64,000 nt of DNA, from contig JASAND010021524.1 of assembly GCA_030248195.1 (NCBI GenBank), positions 1 through 64,000 on the forward strand, in the 5' to 3' direction. The notes under the pieces are model-generated. The model saw nothing but the letters and a program-made list of their open reading frames with translations. It did not search any database and was not told the origin of the DNA. The stretch is from Trissonchulus latispiculum. Taxonomy: Eukaryota > Nematoda > Enoplea > Enoplida > Ironidae. This document shows positions 30,680 to 47,092 of this stretch, in pieces; position 1 is the first letter of the stretch; each line of letters opens with the position of its first letter. The position numbers and the translations under genes are program-made.

Positions 30680-31922
30680 TGTAACGGGGCTGGCCGGGTT
30701 CTACTGTCCTCAATCACTGACGTGCCGCTAGTTTATATAACAGAGCTCCAGCTTAAGATACGTTTAATAGCAGTCTGAGCTCACGTAGGGCAGCTACAAG
30801 ATATCCCACCCCAGATGGGAAGGCCCGGACCCTCGACTTTCTAGAGCTTTTTCCGGGGGAGCCCATTCCCTTAACCTCCCACAGCATTTTCTAGGAGAAG
30901 AATATAAAATGTGAGCACATGATGTGTTTTAACCCACAAATACTGTACTGTTTTCGCTGCACTAGTCACTTCACTACAACCAACTAAGTAATAGAAATTG
31001 CAATTTCACAGAAGGCTAGTTTCAAGGTCATACTGGACATTAGAGACCTTCACGGGCCTGAATTTTCAGGCCCGGCCCGGCCCGGCCCGTAAAAATTTCA
31101 CCTCGGCCCGGCGCGGCCCGGCCCGTTTGAAAAATTTTCGACCTCGGCCTGGCCCGGCCCGGCCCGCTCCAACTTAGGCCCGGGCCGGCCCGGCCCGTAA
31201 GCTCAAACGTTAGGCCTGGCCCGGCCCGGACCCGTTTTTGCTATTTTTTTGCCGTTAGCCAAATAAAAATAAGGGTTTAAAATGCATAGAATTTTATTCC
31301 TCATCGCAGATACCATTTTTAAACGATTTCTCGTTGCTCATGTTTATTTTGAGCGATTAAGAACAGTCAGCGGTTCAGCTTAGGAAAGAATTCACTGACT
31401 GACCAGTTTTGTTGATTCAAATATACCTTGCAATTCATTAGGAAGAAGGTATACTCTCCCAATATTACAAATAAATGATATAAATAACTTAGTTTCAGAT
31501 ACTAATGTACAAATTCTAGCTACAGATTACGTTACATAAACGTAAATGAGATAAGTGCATTCACCAGTAACTCTGAAAGAGAAAGGAAATCAAATTAAGA
31601 TTGAAATAAAGTAGCAATGATTATTCAAAATTATATTTGGAAAAGAATAAAATTTCCAATATAACCTGCTGAAACAAGAAACAAGACAAAACCTTCTAAT
31701 GAAAATACCAGGCCCGGCCAGAAGCCCGACCCGTTCCAGTACTCGGCCCGGCCCGGCCCGGCCAGCACCCAAATTTTTCCTACCTCGGCCAGGCCCGGCC
31801 CGGCCCGGTCCGACCCGTTTCACTTTAGGCCCGGCCCGGCCCGCGGGCCGGGCCGGGCCGGGCTTACGGGCCTGAGTGAAGGTCTCTACTGGACATTCTA
31901 GTCAGGGCCAACTCTTGAATTC
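30680..31922 (-). mobile_element. 3' LTR of Ty3/gypsy element 1 (interrupted)
   Basis: Sequence from TGTAACGGGG (30680) to about 31922 matches 40359-40775, apart from an 846-bp insertion and its 10-bp duplication, and a deletion of about 22 bp. Shared words include GACGTGCCGCTAGTTTATAT and TTTTTCCGGGGGAGCCCATT. Since all genes of the element are on the minus strand, this is its 3' LTR. The inner boundary (near 31922) is uncertain because the two copies diverge after CTCTTGAATTC. No flanking duplication could be assigned. Confidence 0.88.
31042..31887. mobile_element. GGCCCGGCCCGG-rich DNA element with 10-bp duplication
   Basis: AGAGACCTTCAC at 31042 and GTGAAGGTCTCT at 31876-31887 form a 12-bp perfect terminal inverted repeat. 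ACTGGACATT is duplicated immediately outside (31032-31041 and 31888-31897). The homologous LTR at 40,736-40,745 has a single copy, proving an insertion. Both ends are packed with GGCCCGGCCC repeats in opposite orientation, around an AT-rich core. A 10-bp duplication is most like Mutator-type (9-10 bp) transposition, less like hAT (8 bp). No transposase. Confidence 0.93.
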
Positions 31923-32154
31923 CCTATCTCTAGGCTTTCAACACCTTGCAGTATCGCTTTCAAAACGTTGTATCCACTGTAATGTTTACTTAGTGCTGTA
32001 TAGTCAGCAGAGTATATAGCACAGTAGTCACACAGCTCACTCCCCCATCTTAGCCCGTTGTTGGTACTGTAACAGAATTTTGAAAATCGTGCAATTATTT
32101 AGGAAAATGCTATGTTTTAAAAAACAAGGGAATTATATAACATATTCTTTCTTG

Positions 32155-32590
32155 TTAATATTTCGAGACACTTAAACTTACGAGAATTTCAACTTTCGAG
32201 TCTTTTTAATGTTTCGAGACATTATCTGCACATTTGGAGACAATATTTCGAGACTTTTAACTATCATATTTTGAGTCGTTTTTCATGTTTCGAGACTTTC
32301 CGAAAATCATGATTTGAAATGTCCCGAAATATACTCAAATGTCTCGAAACATTTTCATAAGTTTCGAAACAGATTTAGAAGTCTCGAAATATTTTACGAA
32401 GTCTCGAAATACTTTACGAAGTCTCAAAACACGTTTTGGTAAAGTCTCAAATGTAAAGTAAAGTATTTTTGTATTTTTGTTAAGTAAACACAAATTTTAA
32501 AATGTCTCAAAAGACTTTCAAAAAGTCTCGAAAGTTGAAAATCTTTCGAGACAAAAAGTCTCGAAAGTAGAAAAATATTTCGAGACAAAT
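32155..32590. repeat. Convergent array of TTTCGAGAC / GTCTCGAAA
   Basis: About seven TTTCGAGAC-like words lie in the left half (32,155-32,300) and about ten GTCTCGAAA-like words in the right half (32,340-32,550), ending in alternating forward and reverse copies. The arrangement makes the region self-complementary in many registers. It lies between the 3' LTR and the integrase stop of the retroelement, in non-coding sequence. Confidence 0.75.
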
Positions 32591-32812
32591 CACAACTTTC
32601 CGGAAACTTTCTACACTCGCGGTGGAGTTAAAGCTGACATACCCATTAGTTCGTCAGTGGCACTATCTTAAGCTTAGTTAAAAATATTTTAAGCAGGCCA
32701 AAAACAAAAAATCTGGCACAATAGCACAATCAGCTTCTCCTACTATTACTTAGACAGAAGGTGATTGCACTATAAAACTGGCCTCCACCACTGGTTTACT
32801 ATTAATAAACGA

Positions 32813-33586
32813 TTACACTTCCGGGCTAGGAGTACTTCTTTCGTCGTGAGTTGAAAGGTCAGCGCCAAGTTGGACCTGCAGGGGTTGCACATGCAGAACT
32901 GGGACGAGCAAGACTTTGTTTTTATGGACAACTAGTTCAGGACTATTAGGTTCATACGTGTTACGGATAACAACGTCAGGATCACGGACCTGAGTGATTC
33001 GGTAAATAAAATCCCATTTCGAAAGCAACTTAGAAGCTCCGAACGGACGACTACGAACCTTATCGCCAACCCTAAGGACCTGTGGACGAGCTCTTCGATC
33101 GTACGCGCTAGAATATCTATTTTGGGCACTGAGAATGTTTTCTTTGGCCAGGTCCCACGCAGTTTGAAGAGTGCTCGTTAAGGTAACTAAATAGTTGTCG
33201 GTATCTTGGTACTGGGCATCACCTTCGATGTAGTGATCTGTGGGTAAACGGGGGTCGCGGCCAAAAAGGAGAAAGTGGGGACTTTCCCTGGTCGATTCAT
33301 GAACTGAAGAGCGATACGCGAACAGACAAGGATTCAGATATTGTTCCCATTCTTCATCGTAGTCAACCAGTTTGGCGAGCATATCGCAAAGAGTGCGATT
33401 AACCCGTTCGGTAAGGCCGTTGCACTGCGGATGATGGGATGTGGTATATACTTTCCGGATGCGCATTACTTCGCACAGTTTCTGGACTAACTCTGCTCTA
33501 AAACAAGGACCGTTGTCTGATAACAACTCAGATGGAGCTCCATACCTGCACACAATTTGCTCAAACAGAACTGTGGCTACAGTCAT
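32813..33586 (-). CDS. Ty3/gypsy element 1 integrase, C-terminal part
   Basis: The 257-codon frame contains SDNGPCF (second catalytic Asp, residue 24) and HHPQCNGLTERVNRTL (catalytic Glu, residue 60). The 35-residue spacing is that of the D,D35E integrase core. It continues with LFAYRSSVHESTRESPHFLL and a C-terminal segment (about residues 165-230) ending in a hydrophilic tail. The protein would insert retroelement cDNA in the nucleus. The first Asp and HHCC domain lie upstream in other frames, so this copy is broken. Its first codon is internal, not a real start. Confidence 0.93.
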   Translation of the reverse strand: MTVATVLFEQIVCRYGAPSELLSDNGPCFRAELVQKLCEVMRIRKVYTTSHHPQCNGLTERVNRTLCDMLAKLVDYDEEWEQYLNPCLFAYRSSVHESTRESPHFLLFGRDPRLPTDHYIEGDAQYQDTDNYLVTLTSTLQTAWDLAKENILSAQNRYSSAYDRRARPQVLRVGDKVRSRPFGASKLLSKWDFIYRITQVRDPDVVIRNTYEPNSPELVVHKNKVLLVPVLHVQPLQVQLGADLSTHDERSTPSPEV

Positions 33587-33615
33587 CGCTGTCTGGTCGG
33601 GAATGGCGTACGCCT

Positions 33616-34412
33616 CTACCCATTTGGTAAAGTAGTCTGTGAATACGACGATGTATCGGTTGCCATGAGGTGAAACCGGCAGAGGGCCTTCGATATCGGT
33701 ACCTTCCAGGTGGAAAGGTGCAACAACTGGTATGGGATGTAGGAATTCCCTAAATGGTGGATTAGGTTATGTCCGACGCGCGCACTCAGGACAATTTCTA
33801 CACCAGCGCTTGGCAAACGTACGCATGCCTGGCCAGTAATAACGCATCTGAAGATGCCTGTACGTGTGAGAAAATCGAAGGTGTGCAGCCAAAGCGCTGT
33901 CATGTACTTCCTTCATTATCAATCTGCTATACGCAGATAGGACAGCGAGCTGCTCCCAATAGTCATCGGATCTCCTTCCGTGGAAAATTGGCGGTACAGA
34001 ATGTTATTGCGAAGAAAGTAAAGCGGAGCTTCAACAGCTACTTTCTTTGCTGATTTAGGATCGTCGAGAAGCTGTTGCGTTGTTAGGTATACATAAATGT
34101 CAGCAAAGTCTGGGTCACGACGTTGAGATGACGCAAGATTTGCATAGATGGCTATTGCTACTACTGGATTACTCGATAAGGCATCCGCATTCTGGTGCTT
34201 CTTTCCACCTTGGTGAACAATCTCAAAGGTATAGACCGATAATTTCAAGGCCCATCGTCTAAGCCGTTCCGACTCATGCTCCTTTTGTAGCAGCCATTTA
34301 AGAGCACTATGACCCGTAACAACTGTGGATTTAATGCCATAAATCTAATGATGTAGCGTTTTGACAGCCCAAACTACTGCAAGTACTTCTAATTCCGTAA
34401 TTAGATAATTTT
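33616..34412 (-). pseudogene. Ty3/gypsy element 1 RNase H end and integrase N-terminal region
   Basis: 34248-33919 encodes VYTFEIVHQGGKKHQNADAL, the signature at the end of the Ty3/gypsy RNase H/connection. 33903-33616 carries the region where the integrase HHCC finger and first Asp should be, but it is distributed over more than one frame. Stops and shifts also occur between 34412 and 34250. These breaks separate the RT frame from the integrase frame, so this copy cannot make a full Pol. Confidence 0.8.
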
Positions 34413-35714
34413 CTAGCTTCCTTGAAATACCCTACTAAGGAACACTACAGGTCTTTCACCAGTGTGGTCTGTTTGCGACAAAACGGCCCCTAGACCAATT
34501 CTGGATGCATCAGTATGCAGAACAAAGGGAATGGACAAATCAGGGTATCGTAGAATTGGTTGAGTCGACATCACATGCTTAAGATCAACAAATGCTTTTT
34601 CGCATAAAGGTGTCCATTCAAACTGAGCGTTCTTTCCCGTAAGCACATGAAGAGGCGAAGCGATGGATGCGAAATCCTTAATGAATCGACGGTAATAACT
34701 TGCAAGCCCTATAAATTCACAAACGTTCGTCTGTGTAAGTGTTCGTGGAAAGTTCTCAATAGCACGCATCTTGTCGGGATCTGCCTCAATACCCATAGAG
34801 GAAACCACATGACCAAGAACTTTGACTTTCTTGCGCGCGAAATAACACTTCTTTGGCTTTAATTTGAGATTTGCTGCCTCAAGCTTTTGGAAAACGTGTT
34901 CTAAATGATTTAGATGATCGTCAAACGATTTTGAAAAAATGATGACATCATCTAAGTACACAAGACACGAGTCCCATGTTAGACCACTAAGAACGAGATT
35001 CATAAGCCTCTGGAAGGTAGGGGGTGCATTGGTCAGGCCCATAGGCATGACGTTATATTCGAATAGGTCCACGTGTGTCGAAAACGCTGTGAGCTCTTTG
35101 GCGCGTTCTGTCAATGGCACTTGGTAAAATCCGGAGTGAAGATCGATGGTCGAGAAATAAACATTGCCCCCGCCTAGGGCTTCCAATGCCTCATCGATGC
35201 GAGGAAGAGGGTAGACATCACGCTTTGTTATTTGATTGAGCCTACGGTAATCCACGCAGAACCTATCAGAACCCCCGTCCTTTTTGGAAACCAACACCAC
35301 TGGCGAACTCCAGGGACTGAAGCTTGGTTTGATCATATTGTTCTTCAGCATGTCGCTAACCATTTTCTCTACGACTGGTTGCTTGCTTAGTGGTAGCCGA
35401 TACGGGCGCTGTTTAATAGGAAAAGAGTCTTCCTTCAAGTGGATGTCGTGCTGGAGTAAACGAGTCCTGCCAATATCTTCATCACCTGTCGAAAAAACAG
35501 ATTTGTACTGGTGGATCAGAGCCTTCAGTCGCACGAGGTCAGCCTCACTCACATCTGCTGTAGACAGATCGAGTCCTACAATCTCGTGGCATTGACCGGA
35601 CGACTGGGAGGCGATACCACTTGCTACGAATCCTTTGGACACGGTTTGAGTGAACCTACTCGGAATTGCCACTGAGACAACATCTGGAGGTGACAGCGGC
35701 TCAAGTTTGCCCAA
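34413..35714 (-). CDS. Ty3/gypsy element 1 reverse transcriptase with start of RNase H
   Basis: A 433-codon frame with the ordered RT motifs: SPWSSPVVLVSKKDGG (about 133), RFCVDYRRLN (151), DLHSGFYQVPL (191), MPMGLTNAPPTFQRLM (223) and the catalytic YLDD at 253-256. KVLGHVVS and the thumb follow, then FVLHTDASRIGLGAVLSQ, the first RNase H motif. It copies the element's RNA into DNA. The frame is continuous with the protease frame upstream except for one in-frame TGA near 35800. It ends prematurely inside RNase H. Confidence 0.97.
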   Translation of the reverse strand: MGKLEPLSPPDVVSVAIPSRFTQTVSKGFVASGIASQSSGQCHEIVGLDLSTADVSEADLVRLKALIHQYKSVFSTGDEDIGRTRLLQHDIHLKEDSFPIKQRPYRLPLSKQPVVEKMVSDMLKNNMIKPSFSPWSSPVVLVSKKDGGSDRFCVDYRRLNQITKRDVYPLPRIDEALEALGGGNVYFSTIDLHSGFYQVPLTERAKELTAFSTHVDLFEYNVMPMGLTNAPPTFQRLMNLVLSGLTWDSCLVYLDDVIIFSKSFDDHLNHLEHVFQKLEAANLKLKPKKCYFARKKVKVLGHVVSSMGIEADPDKMRAIENFPRTLTQTNVCEFIGLASYYRRFIKDFASIASPLHVLTGKNAQFEWTPLCEKAFVDLKHVMSTQPILRYPDLSIPFVLHTDASRIGLGAVLSQTDHTGERPVVFLSRVFQGS

Positions 35715-35801
35715 ACAGCTGCCAGCCTTTATGGTAACCGGGTGGTCAGATGGATTCAGAACTTTTACTGGTATACTACTATTGCGAACGGTTCCTACTG
35801 A

Positions 35802-36503
35802 TCAGGCTAAGTACACACCTTGTTGACGTACCAGATGCACATTAGGTTCAAAGAATAATGTGGATCCGTTAGCGGCGCAGCCTGTAGGAATAGTACAAGA
35901 AAGTACCGCTTCACAACGCTTAGGAATAACCCAATCGACTTCTGACCTCAGAGCTCGAGGCTCTGATGGCAAAAGTGAAGTAGCCGACGAGCCTATTGCT
36001 ATTTTTCCAGATGCGAAGTTGATGACCAAAGTTCCGAATTTGGATAGCAAGTCTGCACCGAGAACGCAAGGCATTAGAGCCCCTGGTATGAGGTAACAAG
36101 GATGTTTGAGCTTCGTGTCTCCGAACGAGAATTCAAGGTTGGTTAGACCTTTCAGTGGAAGGAAATGACCTGTCATCGACGAAATCGTCGGCATAGACTC
36201 GGCGGTTAGGCCCAAAATGGTACTCGAAGGAAACATTGATTTAACTAAGTCCTCCTTTATCAGGGTGATCGATGCCCCTGTATCCAACAATGCACGCACT
36301 TGCATGCCTTGAATTACCGCCAGAATTGTCATTGCTGGATAAGGATTTGGACCAAGGCCCAAACAGTGACCCATAGACTTGCCAAAGAATTTGCTACGAA
36401 ACAATCCCTGTATCACGATGTATACAGTCAGCAAAAGCACTAAAAGAATTGTGCCATCCGTTTTTTCAAACAGCCCACAGTGGAACAAAACAAGGGAGGA
36501 CAA
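35802..36503 (-). CDS. Ty3/gypsy element 1 retropepsin with N-terminal membrane segments
   Basis: VRALLDTGASITLI (active-site DTGA at residues 74-77) is a retroviral-type aspartic protease, and LGADLLSKFGTLVIN is the downstream family motif. Before it, the frame encodes a hydrophobic segment (residues 1-12 and upstream), a second one (about 18-34, TILLVLLLTVYIVIQGLF) and a basic stretch. That is unusual for a gypsy protease. The frame stays open upstream to about 36665 with no ATG, so the true start or expression mode is unknown. An in-frame TGA separates it from RT. Confidence 0.88.
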   Translation of the reverse strand: MSSLVLFHCGLFEKTDGTILLVLLLTVYIVIQGLFRSKFFGKSMGHCLGLGPNPYPAMTILAVIQGMQVRALLDTGASITLIKEDLVKSMFPSSTILGLTAESMPTISSMTGHFLPLKGLTNLEFSFGDTKLKHPCYLIPGALMPCVLGADLLSKFGTLVINFASGKIAIGSSATSLLPSEPRALRSEVDWVIPKRCEAVLSCTIPTGCAANGSTLFFEPNVHLVRQQGVYLA

Positions 36504-36737
36504 GAACCCAACAGCATAAACGGTTCTGGAGAAGTAAAACCGAGGAGGTTCATCAGCAGATCGGCGACGGTATCTAACCAGTGGTGTGCGCTCTTGTAGT
36601 TCCGCGTTGTCAGTATGATCAGTATCATTATAATCTATGTCCGCAGACGTAAAGCTTGGTCCCTTTCAAAAGCAGGCAAGATACGCAATCGACGCAGGCG
36701 CCGGTGAGGCCCGAACGAACGTCTACTCTTTGCAATT

Positions 36738-38300
36738 CTACAACACCAGCAAAACAAAGAGTGCTATCAAAATGATGATGACTACCGACACAAGGAAGTA
36801 CAAGAAGCCAAGATGGGTCGAGCCGTGTAAACCTAAGTGGAAGAAATCCGTTTCCAGCCGGGCGGCTTCTTTCATGGCTTGCGAAGCTGCGTCATTGTGA
36901 CGAAGAGCGCTATTCAAGTCGCCCCACTGAATTGATCCTGTCAAGTTTGTGAAGAGATCCACTAATGGGTACATTGTTCCTAGGATGACGTTGACCTGGT
37001 GCGTTTGGCGCAACGTATTTGTTACGATTTTATCCCCAATGGTGACTACACTGTATTCCCTATGCTCGAGCCAAATGACACCATGTTCTGGCATACTAAT
37101 GCGGCGACCGGTCGTTTTCTGGGAAACCGATTTCTCAGTAGACAGGAGCAAAGACGTTTCGTTGCTACCTATCAGCAATCCACTGGTAGTAGACACAATG
37201 AGTGTTTCGTTCCTATGCTCGCGTATGTCAACATTGGCTTTGCAAGGAAGCACGTCCTTTATGCCGCCGTGTGCCGATGGCAGCATTAGTGCTCGGAGAC
37301 AGCTGTTCAGTTCAGATTCTAGTGGGGCTATCGCTCCTGCACTGCACTGCCACAACGCTGGATACATTCTACAAGAAGACGTATCCACCGTGCTATAACC
37401 ACGGGGGTCGTGAGAGTGTGATGGAATTAGAACCTCTGGCAGTCGCAGGCGGCACAGATTGTGGTAAGCTGTTTTTGTAGTCCAGCCGACATTATGGACC
37501 TGGTACATTGGATGAACAGCTTCCTGTCTAATGATCGGAACTTCAATCAGAAACGCAAACGTTAACGTTCGCAGTTCTATCCGAATCGGGTAAATCGTTG
37601 CGAACTGGTAAATCAAGGAGGGTTCCTTCATTAGCAAAGTATCGGCAAAATCTGGAACATGCCCTAGCAGTTCTCGTGCACGGGTTACGCTCATCAATTC
37701 TGGTGTCAGGCGACCAGTTGTTGCCGATGACACAACGTGACCCACGAGTGCAGTAAGCGCGTTTGTTACTATGTGCAATACGATGGCACCCTCTAACTGC
37801 GATGTAGACTGGTTAGACTGACATTCTAGAATCTGCAGGGAAGAGTGCAGTTTCTCGACGGCATGGTGAACGAAGGAATACAGCTTGCTGTTGGCAACCT
37901 GTATTTCCTGCAGTGCCTTCGCCCTCAACTGTGATTCTTGGTGGATTAGGTACACGGACTGGTACAAGGAGTCTACTTGAGCAGACAGTTTCCCTAAGTA
38001 AATGCTATTGGCAATACCCAATCCGGCACCACTAAGTCCTAGAATTCCAGCAGCTATTAGGCCCAGCTGTCTTGGCTCTCTAACATTTTCTGAATCGTCT
38101 GGAGTGGGCTTACGACAAAGACTTTGCTGCCTTCCGCATACTGAGCGAAGTAGTTCAGCATAGTAGGCGGTATCCAATAGTCCGTCGTATGCGCTTGCAG
38201 TAGCCTCAGTGGCCTCCCTAAGCTTTAACGACAGTGGAAACAAATCACATCGCATGTTGTTCCTGTAGTCTCCTTCAGGTCTGCGACGGAGAGAAACCAA
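36738..38300 (-). CDS. Envelope-like glycoprotein, main ectodomain and anchor, between gag and pol
   Basis: This 520-codon frame looks like a class I-type viral fusion glycoprotein. R-E-P-R at 74-77 fits a furin-type site. It is followed by a Gly/Ala-rich hydrophobic stretch (78-104, LGLIAAGILGLSGAGLGIAN), as in fusion peptides, and then a long helical region (about 104-160). N-glycosylation sequons lie at N163, N364, N380 and N452. A C-terminal membrane anchor (about 497-520) ends at the stop. The signal peptide is in the upstream frame (38275-38589), one base out of register. Envelope genes in gypsy elements normally follow pol, but here the gene precedes protease and RT. I cannot assign an env family. 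Confidence 0.8.
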   Translation of the reverse strand: MVSLRRRPEGDYRNNMRCDLFPLSLKLREATEATASAYDGLLDTAYYAELLRSVCGRQQSLCRKPTPDDSENVREPRQLGLIAAGILGLSGAGLGIANSIYLGKLSAQVDSLYQSVYLIHQESQLRAKALQEIQVANSKLYSFVHHAVEKLHSSLQILECQSNQSTSQLEGAIVLHIVTNALTALVGHVVSSATTGRLTPELMSVTRARELLGHVPDFADTLLMKEPSLIYQFATIYPIRIELRTLTFAFLIEVPIIRQEAVHPMYQVHNVGWTTKTAYHNLCRLRLPEVLIPSHSHDPRGYSTVDTSSCRMYPALWQCSAGAIAPLESELNSCLRALMLPSAHGGIKDVLPCKANVDIREHRNETLIVSTTSGLLIGSNETSLLLSTEKSVSQKTTGRRISMPEHGVIWLEHREYSVVTIGDKIVTNTLRQTHQVNVILGTMYPLVDLFTNLTGSIQWGDLNSALRHNDAASQAMKEAARLETDFFHLGLHGSTHLGFLYFLVSVVIIILIALFVLLVL

Positions 38301-38589
38301 GTTGGATATAATTCGTATGCATCACCACAGGAAAGTAGCGCACATCGTCTGGGGATATCAGAAATCCCTTTGGTTCCAGCACTATCCCAACTCCAGCGTG
38401 GACAACTGTACCTATTTGTCTCATCGAACCTGCGAGGAAATCACAAGAGCTTGCGAGCGCTACAGGAGAAAAAAGAAAAATTATTGCTAAAAGCATCAGG
38501 TAAGGATATCCCTGCATGGATGACTGCCGGACGAATGAAGGAGACGGTGTAGGCAACTTTCGGTGTTTCGACAGCTGTTCGGTATCCAA
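38275..38589 (-). CDS. N-terminal part of the envelope-like gene (signal peptide)
   Basis: A 104-codon frame. A Ser/Pro-rich leader is followed by a hydrophobic core at about 29-45 (YLMLLAIIFLFSPVALASS), with ALA-SS as a plausible signal peptidase site. The mature part continues to HTNYIQLG. The first or second Met (38589 or 38517) could be the start. It overlaps the 520-codon frame by 26 nt in a different phase. Similarity of purpose and the lack of a signal peptide in the second frame suggest one gene broken by a small indel. A splice or programmed shift is not excluded. Confidence 0.7.
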   Translation of the reverse strand: MDTEQLSKHRKLPTPSPSFVRQSSMQGYPYLMLLAIIFLFSPVALASSCDFLAGSMRQIGTVVHAGVGIVLEPKGFLISPDDVRYFPVVMHTNYIQLGFSPSQT

Positions 38590-38610
38590 GTTGCACTGAA
38601 TACTTTTGGG

Positions 38611-40051
38611 CTAGCTTAGAATGGGCGTGGTTTGAACTAGAGCTGCGACTCGCAAGTCTGGACGTTCGAAGAGTCTTTTATTCTGTTCTTGGAGAGCAAC
38701 CAATCCAGTAGTCCAGTCATATTGGGTTGCGGCAGCCGCTTGTCCTTCTACAGGGTACGGCTCCACTTGATTACCTAGAGGGCATGTCCCAACTTCACAG
38801 AACTCTTCTGCTGGGAACCCTTGCTGAGTCTCGTGTCTTGAGTCGAACTGCTCGACTGCAAAATTGACCGGTGGAGACACGTAACTGGGGTAGGCATTGC
38901 TTCGATTTGGTGGGTAAGCCGCAGTGTGATCATAGCCTGAGTATGCATGCGCCCCGTGTCTACCCCCTTGTCCCTGTCTAAAAGGAGTTCTTCCTCCTTG
39001 GGGTCGCCCACCTCTGTTCCGGCGAGCTGCATCTCTTGCTGCATCTGTGTGGGCAATTAGATCTTAGGTGGCCAACACTTTGACATACGAAACACCGCAG
39101 TTGCTCTCGTCTGCTGTTAGTTTGTTGTGTGAATGTCTGATTTGCACGGTTTGACGAGCAGTTTTGAGGTGCTGTGCTGTTAGGATTGGCTAATTGTCTT
39201 GCAATAGCCTGCATTTCTTGTAGCATTAAATTGGTCATTCTGGTTTCTAAATTTGCCAAATCAGGTCGATGTGACAGCGGCATGCATCCCTACGCCAGTA
39301 CCGATGCCCGTGTCAGTGGAATACGCAGCATAATGACCTCTATTCTGACGGCTTGCAAACTGTCTGTTTCTGTCTCTACGAAGATTTCCGTCATTTCGTA
39401 CGTGACGTCCGTTTGTGCGTCTTCCACTGGTACGGTCCAGCCACGGCGCACTGTTAAACAATAAGTGATCACGAGCTTCCTGTTCGCGTGCACGTTTGAC
39501 AGCTTCACTAAAGGTATCTGGAGCCTGAAGTGCAGTGATAAACTGAAACAAGTGCTTTTTGAGCCCGTGTAGAAAACATTTCTTTTTCAAGGTAGTGCTA
39601 CTTCATCCATATTTGAGAAGCTTTCAGCCACCAATTCTTGGATATCTGCTGCGTAATCACTAACTGCTTCATTTTCTCTTTGATATCTGTTCATTAGTAG
39701 GTCAACAGACAAGTCCGACATATAATTAGTAGAAAACTACTCTTTAAGAGACTGGATTAGCACGGGGTAATTATCCCTAGTAGCCTGTGGCAAACTGTTA
39801 TAAGCACGTTCGGCTGCGTCTTTTAAATATGACGGCAAAATATCGGCCTTCCGTTGCGGGCGAGTTTCACCGTTAGCCGCAACATAACGCTCAAAACCGC
39901 GCAGCCACTTCTCAAAACTTTCTCCGGGTCTACCTTGAAAAGGACCAGGAGGACAGCCGAAATTGCTAATAACAGCCTGACCCACGCCGGCTGCCCCGCC
40001 ACCGGTTACTCCTAAGATATGTGTGTCAGGGTCTGACATTATCAGAAACAA
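38611..40051 (-). pseudogene. Ty3/gypsy element 1 gag
   Basis: Gag is spread over several frames. The N-terminal piece, 40051-39737 (likely start Met at 40039, MSDPD), has CPPGPFQGRPGESFEKWLRG and ADILPSYLKDAAERAYNSLP, typical of gypsy capsid. 39590-39261 follows with FITALQAPDTFSEAVKRARE. Next comes the nucleocapsid piece 39283-38978, with a CCHC knuckle CFVCQSVGHLRSNC at 39053-39094 (CX2CX4HX4C). A Gln/Pro-rich tail ends at 38611. At least three shifts make it non-functional as read. Gag forms the virus-like particle that packages element RNA. Confidence 0.87.
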
Positions 40052-40339: not shown

Positions 40340-40357
40340 ATCCCACCCTCGTCGCCA
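40340..40357 (-). promoter_or_regulatory. Primer binding site, tRNA-Ser-like
   Basis: One base inside the LTR, the minus strand reads TGGCGACGAGGGTGGGAT. This is complementary to the 3' end of a serine tRNA (ending ...CTCGTCG plus CCA), with one likely mismatch or G:U pair. Its place right after the LTR terminal CA fixes the element orientation and the LTR start at 40359. The tRNA identity is from remembered eukaryotic tRNA-Ser sequence and should be checked against this genome. Confidence 0.8.
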
Positions 40358-40358
40358 C

Positions 40359-40775
40359 TGTAACGGGGATGGACGGGTTCTACTGTCCTCAATCACTGAC
40401 GTGCCGCTAGTTTATATAACAGAGCTCCAGCTTAAGATCCGTTTAATAGCAGTCTGAATCAAATGGGTTAAAACCCAGCATGTGCTCACGTAGGGCAGGT
40501 ATAAGATATCCCGCGCCAGATGGAAAGGCCCCATCCCTCGACTTCCCATAGCTTTTTCCGGGGGAGCCCATTCCCTTAACCTCCCACAGCATTTTCTAGG
40601 AGAAGAATATAAAATGTGAGCACATGATGTGTTTTAACCCACAAATACTGTACTGTTTTCGCTGCACTAGTCACTTCACTACAACCAACTAAGTAATAGA
40701 AATTGCAATTTCACAAAAGGCTACTTTCAAGGTCATACTGGACATTCTAGTCAGGGCCGACCAACTCTTGAATTC
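40359..40775 (-). mobile_element. 5' LTR of Ty3/gypsy element 1
   Basis: This intact copy matches 30680-31922 minus its insertion. It starts TGTAACGGGG, and similarity ends near GAATTC at 40775. Relative to the other LTR it has about 22 extra bases near GGTTAAAACCCAGCATG and a number of substitutions, so the insertion is not recent. It contains the single-copy target ACTGGACATT that is duplicated in the other LTR. The promoter should lie here and drive minus-strand transcription. Confidence 0.88.
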
Positions 40776-42453: not shown

Positions 42454-43800
42454 TCATATATAATGAATTTTTGGTTTCAGGTTAAATGAGACGCCTTTCT
42501 TTGATACAAGCTCCTTGCTTGGACCAAACCCGAGGGCTGGTTTAACTCGGTCCCAGGAAACTGTCTCTTCCCCGCCATTCCTGGATATTGTCACGGTCTT
42601 TTCCGTCCTTGAGATGACTTTGTACGGTCCTTCGTAGGGCCGTTGCAACTTTGGCAACATCAGACCTTCTTTCAACATCCAGACGTGTTTAGCCGTGCGT
42701 AGTCCTTGCGGCACGTGTTCTTTACTGTAGTAATTCCTCGTGGGAGGTTGGAACGAGGCCGTGGCGAAAGTTGTTACGGCCAGGGAGGACGTCAAGATCG
42801 AGTTGTTATGGAAGTAGGAACTGGGAAGGCTAACTGTAGATCCGTAAACCATTTGTGTTGGGGCGTAGCCATGTCGGTTTACGGTGTTTCGTATACCTAG
42901 GAGGATCAGGGGTAAGCATTCATGCCAGGAACGGCCCGAGCACTTCGCTCGGAGCGAATTTTTCAGTGTTCTATGGAATCTTTCAATAAGACCATTACTT
43001 TGTGGGTGATAAGATGTCGTTTTCCTATGCTTTATGTTCAGACATTCCATTAGCTGCCTCCATACCCTTGATTCGAACTGCGTGCCTCGATCTGATATCA
43101 AGGTTTCTGGAACACCAAATCTGCTGATCCACGAGGACATGAATGCTTTTGCAACTGTCTCCGTGGAAATGTTAGTTAGGGGGACGGCCTCCGCCCATGA
43201 GGTGTATCGATCTATAGCTGTCAAGAGGTACCGATAATTTCGCGACGGCGGCAGCGGACCTACGATGTCTAAGTGGACAGTTTCAAATCTACCTTTGGTT
43301 GGAATGGTGCAAACAGGTGTTTTTGTATACCTCGACACTTTGGAAGCCTGGCATTCGCGGCATTCACGACACCAACGTTTGATGTCCCCGAACATCCGAG
43401 GCCACACGTATTTGGAGGACACCAGCTTTTGGGTGGCTCGGATTCCAGGATGATGAAGTCCATGCAGCTCATCGAATAGTCGTTTACGCAGAATAGCCGG
43501 AATGAGCGGTCTTTTTATACCGTTCTTTTCGGAGCACACCATAGCCCCGTGTTCGGTAGGTGCTTCTTGCCACGGCAGTTGTGTCTTCTGCAGATACGCT
43601 GCGAGATCGGTGTCGACCTGTTGCATTTTGACGATGTGTTCGTCGTCCATGACAGACACCTTCGTAACCCGTGATAAGCAGTCCGCCACAACGTTCGTGT
43701 TTCCGGCAACGTGGATAATGTCTGCATTGAACTCAGACACGTAGGATAACCATCGTTCTTGTTGTGGGGTCGGATTCTTCATTGCAAGGCAGTGAACCAA
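42454..43800 (-). CDS. Ty3/gypsy element 2 integrase with end of RNase H
   Basis: A 448-codon frame. Residues 1-45 (NADIIHVAGNTNVVADCLSR) are the RNase H end. The integrase zinc finger has H113, H117, C147 and C150. The catalytic core has D178 (HLDIVGPLPP), D237 (ISDRGTQFES) and E273 (YHPQSNGLIERF), with 35 residues between the last two. The C-terminal part has YEGPYKVISR, a GPY-type module of gypsy integrases. All catalytic residues are present. The frame differs from the preceding RT frame, with one shift near 43,850. Confidence 0.96.
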   Translation of the reverse strand: MVHCLAMKNPTPQQERWLSYVSEFNADIIHVAGNTNVVADCLSRVTKVSVMDDEHIVKMQQVDTDLAAYLQKTQLPWQEAPTEHGAMVCSEKNGIKRPLIPAILRKRLFDELHGLHHPGIRATQKLVSSKYVWPRMFGDIKRWCRECRECQASKVSRYTKTPVCTIPTKGRFETVHLDIVGPLPPSRNYRYLLTAIDRYTSWAEAVPLTNISTETVAKAFMSSWISRFGVPETLISDRGTQFESRVWRQLMECLNIKHRKTTSYHPQSNGLIERFHRTLKNSLRAKCSGRSWHECLPLILLGIRNTVNRHGYAPTQMVYGSTVSLPSSYFHNNSILTSSLAVTTFATASFQPPTRNYYSKEHVPQGLRTAKHVWMLKEGLMLPKLQRPYEGPYKVISRTEKTVTISRNGGEETVSWDRVKPALGFGPSKELVSKKGVSFNLKPKIHYI

Positions 43801-43856
43801 TGGCTTGTGGTCGGTTTTGATAATGAACTTTTCCCCAAGCAGCCAAGAAAAATGCT

Positions 43857-45446
43857 TTAGCTATAAATGGCCAATAGCTCGCGATCAAAAGCAGATTTCT
43901 TGGTTTCTAGAGGGGTTAGCTTTCGAGAGTAAAAAGCCAGTGGTTCTAGTCTGCCGTCTCCGGTCTCTTGGTGTAGGACGGCTCCTAGTGCCTGATTGGA
44001 AGCATCCGTTGTTAGGGACAGTTTGCAGTCGGAATAGGGATGCGCCAGGGTCACAGCCGTCTTGATAGCTGATTTCAGCTTCGTGAACGCTGCTTCTGTT
44101 GCTTCGTTCCACTGTATATTGGTAGATTTTGTCTTCGTGCCCCTGGTTAAGTCAGTCAGAGGGGCTGCCTTGCGGGAGAACTCTGGGACAAACCTAAGGT
44201 AGAAACCGCACATGCCCAAGAAGCGTTTAAGCTGCTTCACAGTGCACGGTCGAGGAAAGTCTAGGATGGGTTTCACCTTATCAGGACTGGGTTGGATCCC
44301 ATCTTTGTTCACGGTGACGCCCAGAAATTGTATCTCTTCTTTGAAGAACTGACACTTGGTGGGCTTTATGTATAAGCCATTTGTATGGAGAAGTTTGAAA
44401 ATTTCTTCCAGGTGTTTGAAATGCTGTTCTTTTGTTTTACTGCCTATAAGGAGATCGTCAACGTAGTTGCCTACGAAGTCGGTTTCCTTAAGGATACTGT
44501 CCATGAATCTTTGAAATGTCTGTGCAGAGTTCCGCAAACCGAATGGCATTCGCCTATATAGGAATAGACCGAAAGGGGTGGTGATTGCAGTCTTGGGCTG
44601 ATCTTCTTTGGCTACCGGAATTAGGTGGTACGCTTTGACTAGGTCCAGCTTTGAAAAGATAGTGCAACCGGAAAATTTGGAGACCACATCTGCTGCGTGC
44701 GGCATGGGATAGCGGTCGGGGATTGTCTTTTTGTTTAATGCGCGATAATCGCCACATGGTCTGAGACTGCCATCAGGCTTTGTGACCACGTGGAGTGGAG
44801 AAGCCCAAGCTGACTCACCTCTGTACACTATGTTCATTTTCTCTAATTCTAAAAATTCTTTTTTCGCCGCCTTCAGCTTTTCACCGAATAGGCGTCGCGG
44901 GCGACTGAAACTAGGCGGGCCTTTGGTTGTTATGTAGTGATATATCATGTCTGAGCCCGTGGTGACCTTGTACTGAGGCTTAGTGATGTCCTCATACCTT
45001 TGCAACAACTGTTTTACTCGGATTTCATCGGATATGTGTCTGACTGTGTTAACTGCTAAGCTAATTTTGTCCTTTGTATAAATCTTTTCTGAGGTTGTAT
45101 CCACCACTACTGAATTTGCTTGTAAAAAATCTTTGCCTAAGATTGGATCTTCTACGTCAGCCAGTTTAAAAACCCAGTGAAAGTCTTGTAAGGTGTTATT
45201 GATTTGAATTGAAAAGTCAAGCGGCAACTCACCGTAGTAGCTAATTGGTGTTGAATTAGCTGCTACAATGTTTGAGGCTAGGTTTTTGGTACACCGGTTT
45301 GGAAACAAATGCTTAGGTAGCAAACTGCACTTGCTTCCTGTGTCAATTAAAAATCTTTCAATGGGCTTGGCAGGGACATACACAGTTCTCACCTCATCTA
45401 GTCCTGCCTGCTGGATGAGGCTTGGCCGTTTAAAGACTTGTTCCAC
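43857..45446 (-). CDS. Ty3/gypsy element 2 protease, reverse transcriptase and RNase H
   Basis: A 529-codon frame. Retropepsin carries FLIDTGSKCSLLP (DTGS at 35-38) and ILGKDFL. RT carries ESAWASPLHVVTKPDGSLRP (from about 211), SKLDLVKAYHLIPV, MPFGLRNSAQTFQRFMD and the catalytic YVDD (328-331). RNase H begins with LTTDASNQALGAVLHQ and reaches FDRELLAIYS, where a small frame disruption occurs. It overlaps the gag frame by 49 nt in another phase, as in gypsy elements that use frameshifting or reinitiation. Good preservation suggests a relatively young copy. Confidence 0.97.
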   Translation of the reverse strand: MEQVFKRPSLIQQAGLDEVRTVYVPAKPIERFLIDTGSKCSLLPKHLFPNRCTKNLASNIVAANSTPISYYGELPLDFSIQINNTLQDFHWVFKLADVEDPILGKDFLQANSVVVDTTSEKIYTKDKISLAVNTVRHISDEIRVKQLLQRYEDITKPQYKVTTGSDMIYHYITTKGPPSFSRPRRLFGEKLKAAKKEFLELEKMNIVYRGESAWASPLHVVTKPDGSLRPCGDYRALNKKTIPDRYPMPHAADVVSKFSGCTIFSKLDLVKAYHLIPVAKEDQPKTAITTPFGLFLYRRMPFGLRNSAQTFQRFMDSILKETDFVGNYVDDLLIGSKTKEQHFKHLEEIFKLLHTNGLYIKPTKCQFFKEEIQFLGVTVNKDGIQPSPDKVKPILDFPRPCTVKQLKRFLGMCGFYLRFVPEFSRKAAPLTDLTRGTKTKSTNIQWNEATEAAFTKLKSAIKTAVTLAHPYSDCKLSLTTDASNQALGAVLHQETGDGRLEPLAFYSRKLTPLETKKSAFDRELLAIYS

Positions 45447-46303
45447 TGGCAGGGTTGATTACACTTTTTGGCTTGCCTTCCGAAACGAAAATGGTAGAAG
45501 CATAGCGGTCCTGCGGGGTTGAAGCGACCACGTGACTGAGAGCGCGATGACGGTCTTTGCGCGTACCGCGATGGAGAGGGTGACGGTGATTGACGGCGTC
45601 GACGCTCATGACGAGAACTGATCGCGTTGACTTTCTCCGTGAGCTCTTTAACGGCCGCTTGCAAATCCTTGATACTGGAGTCGCCGACTCGTTTGGGTGA
45701 CCTTTCTCTGACCTTGCTGACTTTTGTGGGGATTTGTTCCATCATTTTGTCCGCGATTTCGGCCGAGTTGTCGATATCGAGATCGGGCAAGGATACCAGG
45801 ACGACCCTGATAGCCTCGGGCAGGATTTCGTAGAAACGGAGCCGAACGAGCTGGGGGTTACTTGGCGCCAAACGTTGGAGGTGCCGTAACGCGACAGACG
45901 GGCGTCTGTCCCCTAGGTCCTGCTCCGACAGTAATTTCCGCAGCATGCGGTCGTCACTGTCGCACAGGTGGGACACGATGTTCGCCTTTATCGTTTCGAA
46001 GTCCCCGTCCAAGTCGATTCCGCCCTCGATTAGGACGGTCGTGGGCAGGACGGCAAGGAGCGACGCTTTTTTCATCTCAGGGGTGTAGTGGGTCAACAAC
46101 GCCTCGCACTGCTTGAACCAGGTCCTCGGGTCTTTTTCGTAGAAATCTGGGAGTTTACATCGTTTGGTCGCGACAGAGTTTATTGCGCTGGCGGGCGACT
46201 GAGGTGGACTGGTTTCGACTTCAGAAATATCTAAGGCCAACTCCAACGCTTTGGAGTCCTCGCCTTCCAGTTCCCGTATGATTTCACCCTTTGATCCAGG
46301 CAT
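45398..46303 (-). CDS. Ty3/gypsy element 2 Gag
   Basis: I start the protein at the Met at 46303 (MPGSKGEIIRELEGEDSKAL), because sequence upstream in the same frame is proline-rich and is better explained by the overlapping 2A frame. Capsid-like sequence includes LPDFYEKDPRTWFKQCEALL and LLSEQDLGDRRPSVALRHLQ. A basic, Ser/Arg-rich tail precedes a variant zinc motif LCFYHFRFGRQAKKCNQPC (CX2HX9C type), which replaces the usual CCHC. It assembles the particle for the element. Open throughout. Confidence 0.92.
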   Translation of the reverse strand: MPGSKGEIIRELEGEDSKALELALDISEVETSPPQSPASAINSVATKRCKLPDFYEKDPRTWFKQCEALLTHYTPEMKKASLLAVLPTTVLIEGGIDLDGDFETIKANIVSHLCDSDDRMLRKLLSEQDLGDRRPSVALRHLQRLAPSNPQLVRLRFYEILPEAIRVVLVSLPDLDIDNSAEIADKMMEQIPTKVSKVRERSPKRVGDSSIKDLQAAVKELTEKVNAISSRHERRRRQSPSPSPSRYAQRPSSRSQSRGRFNPAGPLCFYHFRFGRQAKKCNQPCQWNKSLNGQASSSRQD

Positions 46304-46683
46304 TTGAAATTCGGGGTCGTTGCGCCGAAGTAGGACAGGGCTTTGGCCAGGGTCTTTTTCCTGAATTGCTTCAGTTCGGTAACTGGGCCGGGATTGGTCT
46401 CGACATCCCCTGCCGTGATTAATAGCAGGCGGAGGACCGAGACATGGCGGTGGGAAATGCCATAGGAAGACCAATTGATACCCAGGGGTGGGAAACCCCC
46501 ACATTTACCGGAAAGTTTTGATCTCACAAATAGTCCGTGGAAGGGGCCCTGGCTTTGGAGTAGTGACGCCCCGAAAAATTCAGCGACACGATCACCCCAA
46601 AGCGGCAGAACCACTGATAACCGTCCCTGGTCAAGGATAGAAAGAGTCCTTAGAAGGATCCAGATAGCTAGCATAGGCTGCAT
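46231..46683 (-). CDS. 2A-containing N-terminal ORF upstream of gag
   Basis: A 150-codon frame beginning MQPMLAIWILLRTLSIL, a hydrophobic possible signal sequence. Residues 81-100 read VSVLRLLLITAGDVETNPGP, a complete 2A (StopGo) oligopeptide with the canonical D-V-E-x-N-P-G-P core at 46384-46410. In 2A, the ribosome skips the Gly-Pro bond, releasing the upstream peptide. The frame runs on past the gag ATG in a different phase (about 40 residues of LKQFRKKTLAKALSYFG and beyond). It may have been fused to gag before a 1-nt change. The 2A motif itself is exact. Confidence 0.88.
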   Translation of the reverse strand: MQPMLAIWILLRTLSILDQGRLSVVLPLWGDRVAEFFGASLLQSQGPFHGLFVRSKLSGKCGGFPPLGINWSSYGISHRHVSVLRLLLITAGDVETNPGPVTELKQFRKKTLAKALSYFGATTPNFKCLDQRVKSYGNWKARTPKRWSWP

Positions 46684-47092
46684 TACTCACGTCGGGACCA
46701 AGACCAAGACAATGACCAAGATATTAGACTGTACATCGCTAGAAAAAGTCGAGTCTTGCTGCGTCGGATGTAAAAAGCTTTCTCGTTTTATTAATTTCAC
46801 TAAGCTTTCTCGCTCTGTTAATTTCACTAAAACACCGTTCTTAATTTGGCGAAAGATTTTGCCAGGAAATTACAGCAAAGCTACCCCCTGCGTCAGAAAC
46901 AGCAAGACATTGTCACTTAAAAAGACAGCTTAATGTCTATCGTTGTTCCAATTGTCGACTATATGCTATTCAAACTGACCACTTTTTACAATTCCTCAAT
47001 ATACAGCAAAGAAAAATGAACGAAGTTAAAATTTTTAGAGCAAAATATAGAACTATACAGAAAAATAAAAACTTATCAGTGCTTCAATTGCC

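What the first reader, a model, noticed from the sequence alone, without database searches (positions are those of the whole stretch)
36738..38589. Envelope-like gene placed between gag and pol in a Ty3/gypsy element
The minus-strand order is LTR, PBS, gag (with CCHC knuckle), a signal-peptide/furin-like-site/hydrophobic-stretch/anchor protein, then protease, RT, RNase H and integrase. Known errantivirus and retrovirus envelopes follow pol. Here the envelope-like frame uses the same LTR-bounded unit but sits upstream of pol. It has an R-E-P-R site, a Gly/Ala-rich 27-residue segment, four N-glycosylation sequons and a C-terminal membrane anchor. It may mark a lineage of enveloped retroelements with a rearranged genome, or a captured host or viral glycoprotein.
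Basis: partly seen in the sequence, partly recalled or inferred. Interest (0 to 1): 0.88.

Follow-up and report, generated by a model that had tools for sequence, protein, structure and literature searches.

The report
Envelope-like gene between gag and pol
A decayed Ty3/gypsy-type jumping element carries a gene laid out like a viral membrane-fusion protein between its capsid and enzyme genes instead of after them, an order that I found described before only for giant planarian elements.

Summary
[quoted passage not shown] The envelope-like body (38321-36741) is open for 527 codons; 1000 shuffles reached at most 236. REPR is followed at once by a Gly/Ala-rich hydrophobic stretch (2 of 20000 shuffles); there are four sequons and a C-terminal anchor. 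The signal-peptide-like start (ATG 38517) is in another frame, so this copy is broken there or has an intron. No frame of 80 aa or more lies between integrase and 3' LTR.

No relative of the body was found and the structure model failed, so 'class I envelope' rests on layout alone. In five other Ty3-like loci (of eleven examined) knuckle and protease are 176-593 nt apart, against about 2.8 kb here.

The order is not unprecedented: planarian Burro elements carry env between gag and pol in one polyprotein (PMC6431247). Different here are the compact size (about 10 kb), env behind its own start codon, and two transmembrane-like stretches before the protease. One dead copy cannot show a lineage.

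The parts
40359..40775 (-). 5' LTR (outer boundary approximate)
   Evidence: repeated as the 3' LTR; 16 mismatches in 362 aligned positions of the first block plus a 26-base gap
40346..40357 (-). primer-binding-site-like TGGCGACGAGGG, one base after the 5' LTR
   Evidence: read by eye; the tRNA was not identified
39740..40051 (-). gag, N-terminal piece
   Evidence: no Pfam match at 0.1, DUF1759 at E 0.29; called gag from its position and look
39264..39602 (-). gag, middle piece (other frame)
   Evidence: no Pfam match
38981..39289 (-). gag piece with CCHC zinc knuckle (about 39097-39047)
   Evidence: PF00098 E 5.6e-5, residues 65-81
38611..39063 (-). frame after the knuckle, taken as the gag C-terminus; ends in TAG at 38613-38611
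   Evidence: no convincing Pfam match
38278..38610 (-). envelope-like gene, first piece: ATG at 38517, signal-peptide-like stretch, start of the ectodomain
36738..38321 (-). envelope-like gene, body, 527 codons: REPR, fusion-peptide-like stretch, helix-like region, four sequons, C-terminal anchor, TAG at 36740-36738
36399..36524 (-). two transmembrane-like stretches (residues 48-66 and 71-89 of the protease frame)
   Evidence: two helices in a low-confidence model
35802..36665 (-). protease frame (DTGA from 36284)
   Evidence: Asp_protease_2 E 2.4e-6, RVP 3.5e-6
34413..35801 (-). reverse transcriptase and start of RNase H
   Evidence: RVT_1 E 7.5e-34, RT_RNaseH_2 2.3e-19
33919..34344 (-). rest of RNase H (other frame)
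   Evidence: RT_RNaseH E 1.9e-5
32813..33766 (-). integrase (other frame)
   Evidence: rve E 5.9e-11
30680..31922 (-). 3' LTR, interrupted by a nested insert at 31042-31887

Best explanation
It is a decayed copy of an enveloped Ty3/gypsy-type element whose envelope gene sits between gag and pol. The gene is laid out like an F-type class I fusion protein: signal peptide, short first subunit (about 125-140 residues over its two pieces), cleavage site REPR, fusion-peptide-like stretch, helix-like region, ectodomain with four sequons and an anchor with almost no tail. Inferred working: the precursor enters the secretory pathway, a furin-like protease cuts after REPR, the protein forms trimers on budding particles or at cell contacts and fuses membranes, so that the element passes between cells. 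Env probably had its own start codon. How pol was made past env (splicing, read-through or polyprotein) is open. Shown: gene order, open frame, order of features. Inferred: cleavage, trimers, fusion, infectivity.
For: Gene order within one LTR pair. 527 open codons against at most 236 in 1000 shuffles; with codon counts from pol of the same element its own frame scores best of six, 1.0 against -2.5 to -9.95. RxxR followed by a stretch passing the same thresholds in 2 of 20000 shuffles, and a C-terminal stretch above 2.5 in 47 of 20000 (thresholds set after seeing the sequence). Hydrophobic 3.5-residue spacing at 104-168, p 0.023 or 0.005 by residue set. Signal-peptide-like stretch after an ATG 93 nt behind the gag stop. 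No frame of 80 aa or more between integrase and 3' LTR. In 5 of 11 Ty3-like loci with both landmarks the knuckle-protease distance is 176-593 nt, against about 2.8 kb here. Precedent for the position: Burro (PMC6431247).
Against: No match of body or first piece in Pfam, PHROGs or PDB sequences, nor of the body in 5.8 billion proteins, IMG/VR or GTDB contigs. The AlphaFold model is unusable (pLDDT 38.8) and its fold search gave nothing at E 0.001. The windows with the strongest 3.5-residue spacing lie at 417-427, not behind the fusion peptide, and the region before the anchor shows none. The codon test is weak: it hardly separates frames of the gag C-terminal piece, -2.74 against -2.95. The gene is split over two frames. 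One copy; no target-site duplication recognised.
Confidence: 0.6

Rival explanations
1. The gene is an envelope, but its place is a peculiarity of this copy or locus: an envelope fragment brought in by recombination between elements or by a nested insertion.
For: No recognisable target-site duplication of the element, and a nested insert with a 10-bp duplication in one LTR shows that insertions happen here. Only one copy is known.
Against: The block is tight: gag stop to env ATG 93 nt, env stop to the protease frame 72 nt. G+C of 36001-38000 is 0.479 and of 38001-40000 0.481. No frame of 80 aa or more is left after integrase.
Confidence: 0.18
2. The gene encodes a membrane protein that is not a viral fusogen, for example a captured host receptor or an element-specific accessory protein.
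For: No homology to any known envelope. Retroelements do carry other extra frames: rotifer elements carry esterase- and exonuclease-like ones after pol (PMC5408684, passages).
Against: Signal peptide, REPR, Gly/Ala-rich stretch, sequons and anchor come in the order of a class I fusogen.
Confidence: 0.16
3. The envelope has been taken over by the host (syncytin-like) and is kept open by selection while gag and pol decay.
For: The 527-codon body is the longest open frame of a copy whose gag and pol are broken.
Against: At about 2.2% change per lineage (half of the LTR difference) such a frame often stays free of stops by chance: 0.317 of simulations at 2%, 0.197 at 3% (small insertions and deletions not modelled). 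The signal-peptide-like start is out of frame with the body.
Confidence: 0.03

Closest known systems
Burro (GYPSM1) giant Ty3/gypsy elements of planarians (PMC6431247, section 7)
   Same: Ty3/gypsy element with an env-like region between gag and protease; the authors call it the first case
   Different: Burro exceeds 30 kb with a 4873-aa ORF1 polyprotein, env in frame with gag and pol, and many extra domains; here about 10 kb, env behind its own start codon, no such domains matched. No sequence comparison was possible.
Errantiviruses (gypsy, ZAM) with baculovirus F-like Env (layout recalled)
   Same: Ty3/gypsy element with an F-type layout of envelope
   Different: Their env follows pol; no Pfam envelope family matches this gene
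MDG1-group elements with sORF2 (PMC11952523, passages)
   Same: LTR retrotransposons with a membrane protein proposed to carry them between cells
   Different: sORF2-like proteins are 63-107 aa and lie upstream of gag or, in 7 of 22 Lepidopteran consensus sequences, after pol; here a large cleavable envelope-like protein
Atlas virus of hookworm (PMC9094657, listing only)
   Same: Retrovirus-like element of an invertebrate with an envelope
   Different: Its envelope is related to GN-GC glycoproteins of Phenuiviridae; no match to any glycoprotein family here

Membership tests
Ty3/gypsy LTR element | LTRs, PBS, gag knuckle, order PR-RT-RH-IN | tested here: met
   (PBS by eye)
Ty3/gypsy LTR element | RT related to Ty3/gypsy RTs | tested here: met
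Ty3/gypsy LTR element | short target-site duplication | tested here: inconclusive
   by eye: none recognisable; outer 5' boundary uncertain
Errantivirus | env located after pol | tested here: not met
   no frame of 80 aa or more between integrase and 3' LTR
Errantivirus | Env matches a known envelope family | tested here: not met
   no Pfam envelope family
Burro-type element | env-like region between gag and protease | tested here: met
   precedent
Burro-type element | gag, env and pol in one frame | tested here: not met
   stops and a change of frame separate them in this copy; decay makes this weak
Burro-type element | sequence relationship of RT or env | not tested
   no Burro sequence was at hand
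Class I (F-type) fusion protein | signal peptide, basic cleavage site followed by a hydrophobic stretch, C-terminal anchor | tested here: met
   signal peptide judged by hydrophobicity and eye, and in another frame than the rest
Class I (F-type) fusion protein | heptad repeats behind the fusion peptide and before the anchor | tested here: inconclusive
   first region p 0.005-0.023, second not periodic, strongest windows elsewhere (417-427)
Class I (F-type) fusion protein | fold | tested here: inconclusive
   pLDDT 38.8, no usable match

The most novel reading that the evidence does not exclude
A compact lineage of enveloped Ty3 elements has gag-env-pol as its regular order and makes Pol as a membrane-tethered precursor: two transmembrane stretches just before the protease form a hairpin that holds Pol on the cytosolic side of the membrane in which Env sits, so that Env and Pol reach the particle together without a Gag-Pol fusion.
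Probability: 0.1. Interest if true: 0.8.

Novelty: new variant of a known kind. Interest (0 to 1): 0.5.

Why it matters
Where the envelope gene sits decides how Gag, Env and Pol are made in the right amounts. A second case of env before pol, in a small element with env as a gene of its own, would show that gag-pol-env is not the only workable order and that envelopes have been captured into more than one site. A membrane-tethered Pol would be a new way of packing the enzymes.

Tried and rejected
Led nowhere: protein-database searches with the envelope body (8000 candidates scored each time, none at the cut-offs 0.01 and 10); viral contigs with body, RT, protease frame and integrase; genome contigs with the body (17 stretches matched a pattern, none encodes a relative); Pfam at E 10 (Las1 at 0.11, taken as chance); PDB sequences (AlbF homolog at 0.21, a hydrogenase at 0.036, taken as chance). 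Two single-sequence AlphaFold jobs gave pLDDT 38.8 and 40.0; the fold search of the first was meaningless. A splice-site scan with approximate recalled weights found 11 donors against 17.8 in shuffles and 17 acceptors against 9.7; four acceptors lie at 38280-38459, one of them at the change of frame, so an intron instead of a frameshift is possible but not shown. Host take-over of the envelope was rejected on simulation. tRNA and Rfam scans of the window gave nothing. Passages of PMC13172572 and PMC8556966 had no bearing on the order.

Rows dropped: 97 of 121 held proteins (P0001 among them) had no protease-like motif with 30 or more residues before it. Of 14 loci, L014 was not put in the table and L003 and L006 had too little upstream, leaving 11; 6 of the 11 lacked one of the two landmarks. 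Two of the 11 show a hydrophobic stretch: L009 (2094, before the RT match) and L013 (2898, after its protease motif); neither was followed further. L010 and L011 come from one bin and look nearly alike.

Full report
What is there. The minus strand of about 40775-30680 holds one LTR element of about 10 kb, nested insert included. Its LTRs are 40359-40775 and 30680-31041 plus about 31888-31922. One search counted 18 mismatches in 364 aligned positions; two fall in three bases of the insert that I had included, so 16 of 362, and one copy has 26 extra bases. A PBS-like TGGCGACGAGGG begins one base after the 5' LTR (by eye). Then follow gag pieces in changing frames with a CCHC knuckle (zf-CCHC E 5.6e-5), the envelope-like gene, protease (RVP E 3.5e-6), RT (E 7.5e-34), RNase H (E 1.9e-5) and integrase (E 5.9e-11). 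The host was not identified.

The envelope-like gene. The body, 38321-36741, is open for 527 codons; 1000 Markov shuffles of 36500-38700 reached at most 236 on either strand. With codon counts from pol of the same element its own frame scores best of six, 1.0 against -2.5 to -9.95; the test is weak, for it hardly separates the frames of the gag C-terminal piece (-2.74 against -2.95). REPR at 81-84 is followed at once by QLGLIAAGILGLSGAGLGIA and is uncharged up to K111. 2 of 20000 shuffles of the protein had an RxxR followed by a stretch passing the same thresholds, and 47 of 20000 a C-terminal stretch above 2.5; I set the thresholds after seeing the sequence. Hydrophobic residues at 104-168 show 3.5-residue spacing (p 0.023 or 0.005 by residue set). 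Against this, the windows with the strongest spacing lie at 417-427, and the region before the anchor shows none. Sequons are at 170, 371, 387 and 459. The signal-peptide-like stretch follows an ATG at 38517, 93 nt after the gag TAG, in the other frame. The break between the two pieces is a frameshift or, as an acceptor-like site at 38280 allows, an intron.

Is it between gag and pol, or was it put there later? The block is tight: 93 nt from gag stop to ATG, 72 nt from the env stop to the protease frame. One search, which lists stop-to-stop frames of 80 aa or more on both strands, shows none between integrase (32813) and the 3' LTR (31922); the nearest, 31590-31901, lies in the LTR and its insert. 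The neighbouring Ty3-like element at 42454-46504 has a pol frame that overlaps the frame taken as its gag, with nothing between. An RT alignment of the window and 13 hits found 14 loci; 11 were examined and 5 have both knuckle and protease motif (L002, L005, L010, L011, L013), 372, 176, 402, 402 and 593 nt apart. L010 and L011 are nearly alike and count as one. In the window the distance is about 2.8 kb. The 11 loci are 39-46% identical in RT, so they show the common layout, not the layout of this family.

What it is. By layout it is an F-type class I fusion protein: short first subunit, cleavage site, fusion peptide, helix-like region, anchor (the layout of that family is recalled). Homology is not shown. 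Body and first piece match nothing in Pfam, PHROGs or PDB sequences; the body matches nothing in 5.8 billion proteins, IMG/VR or GTDB contigs. The first piece was not searched in the last three. The structure model failed (pLDDT 38.8). The protein search sees only relatives that share exact five-residue words, so distant ones could be missed.

The stretch before the protease. Two hydrophobic stretches (48-66 and 71-89 of the protease frame) precede the DTGA at 128; a low-confidence model makes them two helices with a short turn. Charges support a hairpin with both ends in the cytosol only weakly: 7 basic and 9 acidic residues in the 46 before, with RYRRR near the first stretch; 1 and 2 in the turn; 2 and 0 in the 25 after. 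Of 24 held relatives with a protease motif and at least 30 residues before it, none has such a stretch (highest 1.43, threshold 1.6), but their starts are predicted and the search limited their length. In this copy the envelope body and the protease/RT frames share one frame, separated by stops; that fits an ancestral env-pol polyprotein or chance, one in three.

What is known. Papers were searched with nine answered queries. One report of this order was found: Burro elements of planarians, where the env-like region lies in frame between gag and pol and is called the first case (PMC6431247, section 7 read whole; other passages). In rotifer elements env-like frames follow pol (PMC5408684, passages). 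In MDG1-group elements a small membrane protein lies before gag or, in some Lepidoptera, after pol (PMC11952523, passages). Troyka elements have no envelope (PMC12440569, abstract and passages). Cer1 has its extra frame after pol (PMC10309623, passages). That I know of no second case goes no further than these searches in an open-licence library.

State of the copy. Gag, RNase H and integrase change frame, a stop separates protease from RT, and the envelope changes frame once. That the body is open is no sign of selection: with 2 to 3% change per lineage 0.317 to 0.197 of simulated frames stay free of stops (small insertions and deletions not modelled).

Verdict. It is a new variant of a known kind: an enveloped Ty3 element with env before pol, compact and with env behind its own start codon. 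One dead copy without relatives keeps the confidence moderate.

Noticed in passing
window 31042-31887: GGCCCGG-rich insert in the 3' LTR with 12-bp inverted ends (AGAGACCTTCAC / GTGAAGGTCTCT) and a 10-bp duplication ACTGGACATT: a nested DNA-transposon-like element.
   Followed up: partly
window 46234-46686 (minus): A 2A-like motif GDVETNPGP (meaning recalled) in a frame that overlaps the start of the frame taken as gag of the neighbouring Ty3-like element; it may separate a leader peptide from the rest.
   Followed up: no
window 36399-36524 (minus): Two transmembrane-like stretches directly upstream of the protease, not seen in 24 protease-bearing relatives checked.
   Followed up: partly
window 32150-32600: Array of TTTCGAGAC-type short repeats between integrase and the 3' LTR.
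   Followed up: no
L002-L014: Ty3-like RT sequences in contigs binned as bacterial or archaeal genomes, most likely eukaryotic contamination of the bins.
   Followed up: no
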